Assembly (NCBI RefSeq): GCF_030687395.1
Contig: NZ_CP117430.1
Span: 744,001-808,000 of the forward strand
Direction: 5' to 3'
Origin: Pseudomonas wuhanensis
GTDB taxonomy: Bacteria > Pseudomonadota > Gammaproteobacteria > Pseudomonadales > Pseudomonadaceae
Length of the DNA stretch: 64,000 nt
Shown: in pieces, positions 35,237 through 37,771 of the stretch
Position numbering within the stretch: position 1 is the first letter of the stretch
Layout of the letters: each line of letters opens with the position of its first letter
Made by a program: the position numbers and the translations under genes
The notes under the pieces: generated by a model
Seen by the model: the letters and a program-made list of their open reading frames with translations, nothing else
Database searches by the model: none
Told to the model about the DNA's origin: nothing

Positions 35237-36382
35237 TTATCCCAGTGAGTTATCCGGATAGCTGATTTGATATCGAGTACTGCGCCCGCCGCCGGGCAGG
35301 CGTTTCAGGCAGCCCTTCTCCAGCAGTTCGGCCAGATGACGGGTCGCGGTGGCTTTGGAAACCTTTGCCACTGCCTGGTATTGAGCGGCGCTGATGCCAT
35401 TATCGAAACCTCGTTCCCCGCCATCGAGCAAGCGATTCAGTACTTTGGTCTGCTCGGCCGACAGTTCAGATTCCCGATGCGCCTGCCAGAAACGCGCCTT
35501 GCCCAGTACCGACTCGATCCGCGTCATGGCTTGCTGCAAGCTGCGCAACAAGGTTTGCAGGAACCACTCCAGCCACTCGGTGATATCCAGCGTGGCTTTC
35601 TGGCTGGTTTCCAGCACTCGGTAATAGCCTGAACGATCATCCAGAATGCTTGCCGACATGGCATAGAAACGGATGGCCTGAGCCTCACCCTGAGCCAGGG
35701 CCAGATCAGTGATCGTTCGCGTCAGGCGGCCGTTGCCATCGTCGAAAGGATGCAACGTCACGAACCAGAAGTGCGCGACGCCGGCCCGCAGCAAAGGGTC
35801 GAGGCCAACCTGATTTCGGCTGGCTTCAAACCAGCTCAGGAAGGTTTCGAGTTGTCGTTCAAGACCAAGGCGAGGCGGTGCTTCGAAGTGAACGGTCGGC
35901 CTGTCGAGTCGCCCCGAAACCACTTGCATGGGCTCATCGCCGCGCAGGGCACCGACACGGATCGATCGGGCTGCGAGGTCCGTGTCTTGCTCAAGAAACA
36001 GCCATTTATGCCAATCCAGCAATCGCACCAATGTCAGTGGCTCAGCGAAATGCCGGGTCGCGTCGAGCATCAATTGCGCAAGGCCCTCACTGCGCTGACT
36101 CACCTTATCGCCATTGACCAGATCCAAGCCCAACCGTCGCGCCAAAGAAGAGCGTACGGAACCAACATTCAGTTGTTCACCCTCGATAGCGGACGAGGTC
36201 ACGATGTTCTGCAACAACGCATCCAGTTCGTTTTGCGCGCTCAACGAATTGCCGACCGAACTGGCCATCCCCATCAACCGACCCTGTGCCTGAACGCAGT
36301 CGCGCAAAAGTAGCGTCAAGCGCTCGGCTTGCCATTGGAAATTCGGCCAATCAGGCTGCTGCCAGATCCAGTGAGGTGACAT
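35237..36382 (-). CDS. Fic-domain AMP-transferase with N-terminal inhibitory helix and C-terminal winged helix
   Basis: 381 residues starting at MSPHWIWQQPDWPNFQW, a DUF4172-type opening. The inhibitory motif S-x-x-x-E-G is at 63-68 (SSAIEG), placing it with self-inhibited class II Fic proteins. The catalytic motif HPFDDGNGRLTR (His211 to Arg222) is complete. The last 80 residues form a winged helix-turn-helix (ISAAQYQAVAKVSKATATRHLAELLEKGCL). It likely transfers AMP from ATP to a protein target; the target is unknown. Two dyads lie directly upstream. No separate antitoxin gene is adjacent. Confidence 0.9.
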   Translation of the reverse strand: MSPHWIWQQPDWPNFQWQAERLTLLLRDCVQAQGRLMGMASSVGNSLSAQNELDALLQNIVTSSAIEGEQLNVGSVRSSLARRLGLDLVNGDKVSQRSEGLAQLMLDATRHFAEPLTLVRLLDWHKWLFLEQDTDLAARSIRVGALRGDEPMQVVSGRLDRPTVHFEAPPRLGLERQLETFLSWFEASRNQVGLDPLLRAGVAHFWFVTLHPFDDGNGRLTRTITDLALAQGEAQAIRFYAMSASILDDRSGYYRVLETSQKATLDITEWLEWFLQTLLRSLQQAMTRIESVLGKARFWQAHRESELSAEQTKVLNRLLDGGERGFDNGISAAQYQAVAKVSKATATRHLAELLEKGCLKRLPGGGRSTRYQISYPDNSLG

Positions 36383-36405: not shown

Positions 36406-36468
36406 TGAGCCGATTAAAAATGCTATTCGGCTCATATAGTGAGCCGAATATGACGCCTATTCGGCTCA
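36406..36468 (-). promoter_or_regulatory. two tandem inverted repeats (TGAGCCGAAT) upstream of fic
   Basis: Four copies of one 10-mer: TGAGCCGATT at 36406, ATTCGGCTCA at 36425, TGAGCCGAAT at 36440 and ATTCGGCTCA at 36459. They form two 29-bp dyads, each with 9-base spacers, repeated at 34 bases. They lie 24-86 bases upstream of the fic ATG. The symmetry is that of a protein operator; the Fic winged helix is one candidate binder. Confidence 0.75.
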
Positions 36469-36582
36469 CCGTCCAGTTGTCGGACAGCATGTTGCTCACA
36501 TGCGGCTGCGATCGAATCGCGCAACAAGTGGGTTTGGCTGCAGGTGAATTGGTCCAAGCATGTTCAGGCTTTATTTTAGGCA

Positions 36583-36974: not shown

Positions 36975-37721
36975 TTATAGGAAGGGCACGGAAGGTCTGC
37001 GTTTATTGAGCGTCGACCACCAGAATACCCACCCCAATACCCTTATGTTTTGCTTGTCGATCTGCTCGGCACTGAAGATCTCGTCTGGATACTCGGCTTT
37101 GTTGTAGCTGCGCAACCGCAACGCATTCCCCGGCATCCGATGCAGGTATTTGATTCGCAACATCCCGTCATGCTCGATCGCATAAATCTCCCCGTCAATG
37201 ACCTGAGTCAGCCCGCGATCGATGGCAAGCGTCGAACCGTCCTCAATCTTTTCGCCCATGCTGTTGCCGATCATGTGGGTACAAATAGCGTCGGCGTGGC
37301 TGATTTCCAGGGAGTCCAGGTGGCTGCGGGGCAGGCGGATGGATTGGCTGGGGTCTTTGACGACGTGTGTTTTGTTGGAGCCCGGGGCGGTGGTTGTTTC
37401 TTTGTAGAAGGGCAGCTCGACGTCGATAGGCTCGATCACCGTGTAGATGCCGCGGATGGCCTGGGCATCGAAGGTGTTGCCTGATTCGTCGAGCACGCGC
37501 AGGCGTGAGGATTCTTTCGGGCCTTCGCCGGTTTTCAGCCAGTCGCTGTTTACAGACAGTAGTCTGGCGACCTCTTCCATGCGGTAGGCGGGCACACCTC
37601 GGGTGTACCAGTTGTGGATATTTTGCGCTTCCGTGTCGAAGAAAGCGGCAAATCCTGTGGTTGTGATTTTCGCTGCTTCGAGGAGTGCTTTGAACCGTGG
37701 GCCGCTAGTGTTCTTTTTCAT
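36975..37721 (-). CDS. S24-type (LexA/CI-like) transcriptional repressor
   Basis: 248 residues starting MKKNTSGPRFKALLEAAK; the upstream GTG at 37727 is less likely. An N-terminal helix-turn-helix (GFAAFFDTEAQNIHNWYTRGVP, about 20-42) joins a C-terminal S24 peptidase domain. Ser is in CTHMIGNSMGEKI and Lys in GMLRIKYLHR. No obvious Ala-Gly cleavage dipeptide appears in the linker, so RecA-assisted self-cleavage is uncertain. It resembles phage/pyocin repressors, but no phage genes surround it. A dyad lies 51-68 bases upstream. Confidence 0.85.
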   Translation of the reverse strand: MKKNTSGPRFKALLEAAKITTTGFAAFFDTEAQNIHNWYTRGVPAYRMEEVARLLSVNSDWLKTGEGPKESSRLRVLDESGNTFDAQAIRGIYTVIEPIDVELPFYKETTTAPGSNKTHVVKDPSQSIRLPRSHLDSLEISHADAICTHMIGNSMGEKIEDGSTLAIDRGLTQVIDGEIYAIEHDGMLRIKYLHRMPGNALRLRSYNKAEYPDEIFSAEQIDKQNIRVLGWVFWWSTLNKRRPSVPFL

Positions 37722-37771
37722 AAACACGAGTTTACTGGCGCAGGACGGGGGTTTGAATAAACGATCCGTTC

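What the first reader, a model, noticed from the sequence alone, without database searches (positions are those of the whole stretch)
36406..36468. Double dyad of the same 10-mer just upstream of a Fic gene that has its own winged helix
Four copies of TGAGCCGAAT (one with a single change) are arranged as two 29-bp inverted repeats with 9-base spacers, set 34 bases apart, within 90 bases of the start codon. The Fic protein carries both a self-inhibiting helix and a C-terminal winged helix, so it could repress its own gene. I know of no described operator of this form for DUF4172 Fic proteins. A self-regulating, antitoxin-less Fic locus would be unusual.
Basis: partly seen in the sequence, partly recalled or inferred. 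Interest (0 to 1): 0.75.

Follow-up and report, generated by a model that had tools for sequence, protein, structure and literature searches.

The report
Four-box operator read by Fic itself
The DNA just upstream of this Pseudomonas gene holds four copies of a short word that the gene's own protein, a Fic enzyme with a DNA-binding tail, very probably reads in order to turn its own gene down; related bacteria keep the layout but change the word in step with the protein.

Summary
In detail: four TGAGCCGAAT boxes form two 29-bp dyads 34 bp apart, upstream of a DUF4172-Fic-winged-helix gene. It is not chance. In 79 of 79 readable Pseudomonas/Azotobacter orthologs the four boxes stand just upstream of fic. 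In this genome the dyad occurs only here. Box 1 lies in an inferred -35/-10 spacer; box 2 overlaps the -10. Distant DUF4172-Fic genes carry similar dyads (75 of 86 upstream regions; 0 of 86 stretches inside the gene). Their box sequences differ and track the Fic recognition helix (partial Mantel r 0.57, 0 of 2000 permutations). A held-out plasmid set agrees in part: 11 of 12 loci for the main residue rule, but poorly for several new helices. Best reading: autorepression by the Fic winged helix. That has a precedent: CccR of Yersinia pseudotuberculosis (PMC9755527). New here are the family-wide multi-dyad operator and a readable helix-to-box code. Unexplained: 73 of 298 Pseudomonas genomes keep the exact dyad without a fic match. 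No binding or expression was tested.

The parts
35237..36382 (-). fic gene, 381 aa: DUF4172 + Fic domain + C-terminal winged helix
   Evidence: Translation; Pfam PF13776 E 3.5e-31 and PF02661 E 6.7e-11, weak winged-helix hit PF22168 below its cut-off; AlphaFold2 model mean pLDDT 89.7
36459..36468 (-). box 1 (TGAGCCGAAT in fic orientation), inside the inferred -35/-10 spacer
36440..36449 (+). box 2, inverted, overlaps the inferred -10
36425..36434 (-). box 3
36406..36415 (+). box 4, inverted, one change (TGAGCCGATT)
36470..36475 (-). -35 element TGGACG (inferred)
   Evidence: Position. T[GA]GAC in this slot in 63 of 79 orthologs. The generic consensus scan reported no promoter here.
36447..36452 (-). 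-10 element CATATT (inferred), 17-bp spacer from the -35
   Evidence: Position. CATATT in 38 and CACAAT in 21 of 79 orthologs
36125..36370 (-). DUF4172 domain
   Evidence: PF13776 match G000:C1:780125-780370
36176..36196 (-). inhibitory-helix motif SSAIEGE, residues 63-69
   Evidence: I66 and E67 invariant among the 42 aligned sequences; class II label from PMC10628234 passages on the homolog
35717..35752 (-). Fic motif HPFDDGNGRLTR, residues 211-222
35264..35458 (-). winged helix: helices 309-320, 332-339, 343-355 and strands 359-361, 371-373
   Evidence: AlphaFold2 model
35336..35359 (-). start of the recognition helix SKATATRH, residues 342-349, which covaries with the box

Best explanation
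The four boxes are the operator of the fic gene, and the Fic protein is its own regulator. Two winged helices of a Fic dimer would occupy the two arms of each 29-bp dyad (10-mer arms set 17 bp apart), and two dimers would sit on the same face of the DNA 34 bp apart. They would cover the -35/-10 spacer and the -10 and so repress fic. Shown by sequence: the boxes, their constancy, their place relative to a conserved promoter-like pair, and their covariation with the recognition helix. Inferred: physical binding, dimer stoichiometry and the sign (repression). Inferred from a homolog only: operator-bound Fic may also be switched towards deAMPylation, as proposed for CbFic2.
For: 79 of 79 readable orthologs have the four boxes with 9/5/9-base spacing almost fixed, although the DNA upstream of them differs. 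The dyad is unique in the own genome. Box 1 is in the spacer and box 2 on the -10 of a promoter-like pair conserved in most orthologs (63 of 79 for the -35 slot). Distant homologs: a dyad at p <= 0.01 in 75 of 86 upstream regions, against 0 of 86 inside the gene, 2 of 82 downstream and 1 of 84 at 350-500 bp upstream. Box sequence covaries with the recognition helix after control for N-terminal distance (partial rank r 0.570; 0 of 2000 permutations, maximum 0.127), and helix residue 3 fixes box position 2 in all 74 loci tested. Held-out plasmid homologs from four phyla: 15 of 18 with p <= 0.01 (three phyla among these), residue-3 rule right in 11 of 12. CccR is a footprinted, autorepressing Fic of like architecture.
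Against: No binding or expression data. Box arrays persist in 73 of 298 genus genomes without a P0001 match at E <= 1e-40; in 40 of the 47 of these that were read, a third box stands 5 nt from the dyad with at most 2 mismatches although it was not searched for. Eleven of 86 distant upstreams did not reach p <= 0.01. One held-out locus breaks the residue rule (L296), and box prediction for several novel helices was poor (L293, L296, L299, L305, L307: 3-4 of 6 wrong). In 16 of 79 orthologs the -35 slot is lost. CccR's published site has one widely spaced inverted pair, not this layout.
Confidence: 0.87

Rival explanations
1. Another DNA-binding protein, not Fic, reads the boxes, and fic is merely its target.
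For: Box arrays are kept in fic-less genomes; in 20 three-box arrays the spacers differ by 46% on average but the boxes by 1.2%, partly because intact boxes were selected for.
Against: The box tracks the Fic recognition helix across phyla. No close match to the winged helix was found in 20 fic-less genomes; the best hit (E 0.006) is a ~259-aa repressor-like protein (ArsR-like by eye) with no box-like 11-mer near it in the three fic-less genomes read; in the own genome one with 1 and one with 2 mismatches lie about 0.8 and 0.5 kb from it. The dyad occurs at fic and nowhere else in the own genome.
Confidence: 0.06
2. The repeats work as RNA: mutually exclusive hairpins in the leader that attenuate fic.
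For: Boxes 2-3 form a terminator-like hairpin followed by GCATTTTTAA (1 found, 0.6 expected in shuffles); boxes 1-2 and 3-4 can also pair.
Against: Arms change without compensation: dyad 1 has 66 unequal cells of 869 in 34 of 79 loci and 2 both-changed cells; dyad 2 has 37 unequal and 0 both-changed. The dyads lie further apart, by about 10-bp steps, in other clades. The box follows the protein helix. No Rfam match.
Confidence: 0.03
3. The array is a recombination site or mobile repeat (REP-like or excision scar) that happens to lie beside fic.
For: fic is patchy (137 of 298 genomes), and a group of fic-less arrays ends right after box 3.
Against: Genomes with a match show only 1-3 dyads. No fifth box with at most 1 mismatch downstream of the fic start in 79 loci. 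The boxes overlap a promoter-like pair and covary with the helix.
Confidence: 0.04

Closest known systems
CccR of Yersinia pseudotuberculosis (PMC9755527)
   Same: Class II Fic with a C-terminal HTH; represses its own promoter through inverted 10-bp boxes near -35 and -10 (EMSA, DNase I footprint, lacZ fusion, as the paper reports). In our frame its box GATAATCAT shares the first G and the A-T at positions 8-9.
   Different: One inverted pair separated by 26 bp (34 bp apart in our 10-mer frame, twice our 17) instead of two or more dyads with arms 17 bp apart; C instead of A at position 7. CccR is a T6SS effector; nothing here speaks for secretion. Its gene was not fetched or aligned.
CbFic2 of Coxiella burnetii (PDB 8CIL, PMC10628234)
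   Same: Closest solved relative over the whole length (341.5 bits, E 5.9e-101): DUF4172, Fic, wHTH. Binds DNA and forms DUF4172-mediated dimers, as the paper reports.
   Different: Studied with random DNA; the authors left open whether a specific site exists. Its upstream DNA was not examined here.
SoFic of Shewanella oneidensis (PDB 3EQX and others)
   Same: Fic with a winged helix; dimer through the DUF4172 helix according to PMC10628234.
   Different: Only about 46 bits to our protein. PMC10628234 states that DNA binding had not been shown.
Type II toxin-antitoxin Fic systems (Phd-Doc, FicTA)
   Same: A Fic enzyme under transcriptional autoregulation (family knowledge, recalled).
   Different: No antitoxin gene recognised: xseB (label by eye) follows fic directly, and the inhibitory motif and the DNA reader are in the same chain.

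Membership tests
Autoregulated class II Fic with winged helix (CccR-like) | Fic motif HxFx(D/E)GNGRxxR | tested here: met
   HPFDDGNGRLTR 211-222; H211-F213, D215-R219 and R222 invariant in 42 aligned sequences
Autoregulated class II Fic with winged helix (CccR-like) | N-terminal inhibitory helix (S/T)xxxE(G/N) | tested here: met
   SSAIEGE 63-69
Autoregulated class II Fic with winged helix (CccR-like) | C-terminal (winged) HTH | tested here: met
   AlphaFold2 model; alignment to 8CIL residues 304-371
Autoregulated class II Fic with winged helix (CccR-like) | Inverted repeats over its own promoter | tested here: met
   the promoter itself is inferred
Autoregulated class II Fic with winged helix (CccR-like) | Single inverted pair with a 26-bp spacer | tested here: not met
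   Two dyads with 9-bp spacers
Autoregulated class II Fic with winged helix (CccR-like) | Protein binds the site and represses | not testable with these tools
   Only helix-box covariation
Type II toxin-antitoxin Fic | Adjacent antitoxin gene | tested here: not met
   fic is followed by xseB; no partner gene recognised beside it (gene labels by eye)
DNA-switched Fic (CbFic2) | DNA binding changes AMPylation/deAMPylation | not testable with these tools
   Homology only

The most novel reading that the evidence does not exclude
The operator is more than a repressor site: it is the DNA-borne off-switch, in effect an antitoxin made of DNA, for a Fic enzyme. Bound boxes would hold Fic as inactive or deAMPylating dimers, and the solitary box arrays kept by fic-less Pseudomonas would be retained sinks or exapted sites rather than scars.
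Probability: 0.1. Interest if true: 0.87.

Novelty: new variant of a known kind. Interest (0 to 1): 0.62.

Why it matters
Fic proteins with a DNA-binding tail occur in several bacterial phyla, but CccR is the only one with an operator in the papers these searches listed, and CbFic2 was studied with random DNA. A family-wide operator with a helix-to-box code predicts the specific DNA for many of these enzymes. That makes it directly testable whether specific DNA sets both their expression and their catalytic direction. It also supplies a natural set of winged-helix recognition variants.

Tried and rejected
Rfam: nothing at gathering score. The generic sigma-70 scan reported no promoter; the -35/-10 pair is inferred from ortholog conservation. 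The first start-codon regex misplaced several starts and was replaced. The four-box search with equal arms was too rigid for clades with three or more dyads; the single-dyad scan fixes the arm step at 16-18 and favours 17, so the 17-bp step is partly by construction (allowed 14-24), while the 34/44/54-55 dyad steps are not. A competing reader in fic-less genomes was sought: only weak hits. A fifth box downstream of fic, which would explain deletions ending at box 3, was not found. Phages: one distant Fic homolog at E <= 1e-10.

Scars versus retained arrays stays open. Thirty of 80 fic-less genomes without the exact dyad were read at xseB: by eye 12 show a decayed or partial array or fic remains, 18 nothing. 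Contexts of 47 of the 73 fic-less genomes with a dyad were read. One search, where it is free, replaces that claim.

Full report
WHAT IS THERE. On the minus strand at 35237-36382 lies a 381-aa Fic gene: DUF4172, Fic motif HPFDDGNGRLTR, inhibitory motif SSAIEGE, and a C-terminal winged helix. Pfam's only winged-helix match is below its cut-off, so the winged helix rests on the AlphaFold2 model (mean pLDDT 89.7) and on the full-length alignment to the solved homolog 8CIL. In fic orientation the order is -35 TGGACG, box 1, -10 CATATT overlapping box 2, box 3, box 4, ATG. xseB, ispA and dxs follow fic (labels by eye, from no call); no antitoxin-like partner gene was recognised.

IS IT MORE THAN CHANCE. 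The box count in the window is not significant, but the dyad with a 9-base spacer and up to 3 mismatches is found in the whole genome only here. All 79 have the four boxes; 31 are perfect over 40 nt, 29 have 1 mismatch, 10 have 2, 6 have 3, 3 have 4. Spacers: 9 (78) or 10 (1); 5 (79); 9 (74), 10 (3) or 8 (2). These are close orthologs: Pseudomonas and one Azotobacter. The -35 slot reads T[GA]GAC in 63 of 79; the -10 slot is CATATT in 38 and CACAAT in 21.

DUF4172-Fic genes were sampled from the class (75 of 370 genomes) and the phylum (62 of 299). Ninety-eight loci were analysed (L133-L230): 69 of the 82 match rows (13 weak, partial or broken ones dropped), 28 new ones of the 65 rows, and one. 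They include the window's own gene (L158) and five others of the genus; 12 were skipped for an incomplete gene. In 75 of the remaining 86 a dyad with 10-mer arms 16-18 bp apart reaches p <= 0.01 against 1720 Markov shuffles. The same scan on real control stretches gives 0 of 86 inside the gene, 2 of 82 downstream and 1 of 84 at 350-500 bp upstream. Same-strand half-sites within 28-60 bp are spaced 33-35 bp (55 of 105 pairs), 42-45 (14) and 53-55 (31), with none at 36-41 or 46-51: steps of about one helical turn. Pairs within one locus are not independent. The box sequence differs between clades and follows the start of the recognition helix. SKATATR[HDE] goes with GAGCC in 12 of 13; SRATAYR[ED] with GAAGCG in 4 of 4; [PS]NRTASRD with GGCGTG in 6 of 6; SQDTA with GCGGA in 16 of 16; SNDTA with GCGGTG in 4 of 4; SPDTALRD is mixed at the fifth base (loci with p <= 0.01). 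Over 74 loci the helix-box rank Mantel r is 0.805; the partial r given distance of the N-terminal part is 0.570 (0 of 2000 permutations reach it); N-terminal distance also keeps a partial r of 0.349. Helix residue 3 fixes box position 2 completely (mutual information 1.27 bits, equal to the entropy). Many loci are close relatives, so the 74 are not independent; only one duplicate was removed. At N-terminal distances of 0.65-0.80, pairs with the same helix differ by 0.83 of 6 box bases (18 pairs), pairs with three or more helix differences by 3.29 (343 pairs).

HELD-OUT TEST. Eighteen plasmid Fic genes, chosen by me from 60 spread rows of 434 records, were scored with the same dyad scan. Fifteen of 18 have p <= 0.01; L301 (0.020), L304 (0.013) and L303 (0.073) do not. 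They cover Pseudomonadota, Bacteroidota, Deinococcota and, with L303 only, Campylobacterota. For residue types seen in training (A or D), the residue-3 rule is right in 11 of 12; L296 breaks it. For the seven whose helix equals a training helix (first seven residues), mismatches are 0, 2, 0, 1, 1, 0, 1 of 6; for two with one side-residue change (L294, L297), 0. Overall the nearest-helix prediction averages 1.60 mismatches against 2.41 to all training boxes: a modest gain, because helices unlike the training set (L293, L296, L299, L305, L307; also L300 with 2) carry boxes that the table does not predict. Independently, the 86-bp operator DNA alone finds 37 plasmid records, 29 of them Pantoea. 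Of the 20 listed, 14 also stand in the list, and in all 14 the hit lies just upstream of the Fic gene (one across the record start).

RNA OR DNA. If pairing were the selected feature, changes should be compensated. In dyad 1, 66 of 869 cells are unequal (34 of 79 loci) and only 2 cells changed alike on both sides; in dyad 2, 37 and 0. The commonest change, A to T at base 9 of box 2 (26 of 79), goes with a CACAAT-type -10. A terminator-like hairpin of boxes 2-3 exists in the window.

MECHANISM. Shown: anatomy, conservation, promoter overlap, covariation. Inferred: Fic dimers bind and repress. Precedent: CccR autorepresses through AGATAATCAT-N26-ATGATAATCT (PMC9755527, section 10 part 1 of 2 and passages read). 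In our frame its two boxes are 34 bp apart, twice the 17-bp arm step (my arithmetic). CbFic2 binds DNA and is proposed to switch to a deAMPylating dimer on DNA; its authors used random DNA (PMC10628234, abstract, section 13 and passages read). Its helix, SRTTAYRE in the alignment, resembles SRATAYRE, which here goes with GAAGCGATTA; a cognate site of that kind is an inference, not looked for.

THE UNEXPLAINED PART. In 298 genomes of the genus, fic (E <= 1e-40) is in 137 and the exact dyad in 203; the reversed-pattern control is 0 in every genome. Seventy-three genomes have the dyad without such a fic match, 7 have fic (some only fragments) without the exact dyad, 88 neither. Contexts of 47 of the 73 were read. 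Many sit at the xseB locus with boxes 1-3 and then unrelated DNA; others are whole four-box arrays, dyads fused to fic remains, or dyads with a fic start stub. Around these 47 dyads, the 11-mer exactly 5 nt away, which was not part of the search, matches the box with 0 mismatches in 28, 1 in 6, 2 in 6 and 4 or more in 7 (random mean 7.5). In 20 three-box arrays at xseB (17 found by the dyad pattern, 3 through xseB; L116 dropped) the N7 spacers differ by 46% on average and the boxes by 1.2%; this figure is partly by selection, because intact dyads and an intact box 3 were required. No close match to the Fic C-terminal part was found, short relics apart, in those searched (73 genomes; 20 genomes), although several hold other Fic proteins at about 30% identity. 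Against retention: 12 of 30 xseB regions from fic-less genomes without the exact dyad show decayed or partial arrays or fic remains, 18 nothing (by eye). Independent recent losses could also explain the pattern; it was not placed on a tree.

NOVELTY. Searches of the open paper library (20 of 345 listed, 20 of 1,744) showed CccR and CbFic2 as the only Fic papers in the listings whose titles or abstracts speak of DNA binding or transcription; only three papers name DUF4172 with Fic. Most subscription papers and all preprints are missing there, so this is not proof of absence. Verdict: new variant of a known kind.

Noticed in passing
L117, L258 and 18 other loci; L124, L125, L126, L246, L248, L252: Fic-less Pseudomonas genomes keep three- or four-box arrays with intact boxes and diverged spacers; no close match to the Fic winged helix was found in those searched.
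   Followed up: partly
L242 (G091), L253 (G095), G257:C5:48303-48367: In three fic-less genomes the two dyads are exact reverse complements of each other, spacers included, as if one was copied from the other by template switching.
   Followed up: no
L037, L042, L045, L048, L052, L069, L076, L077, L079-L083, L089, L094: Fifteen orthologs lack the T[GA]GAC -35 next to box 1 while keeping the boxes; their fic promoter may lie elsewhere.
   Followed up: no
L128 4353 and L129 4468: A second dyad followed by a short fic-like start stub lies about 2.3 kb downstream of an intact fic, which suggests repeated gain and loss.
   Followed up: partly
plasmid collection: 434 of 72,556 plasmid records encode a homolog of this Fic at E <= 1e-20, 119 of them on plasmids typed as conjugative.
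   Followed up: partly
36975-37727 (-): A gene with an S24 peptidase domain (LexA-like repressor by eye) lies upstream of fic in the window, apparently unrelated to the operator.
   Followed up: no
PP479941.1 19792-20835: Faecalibacterium phage Aster encodes a distant Fic homolog (22% identity), the only phage hit at E <= 1e-10.
   Followed up: no
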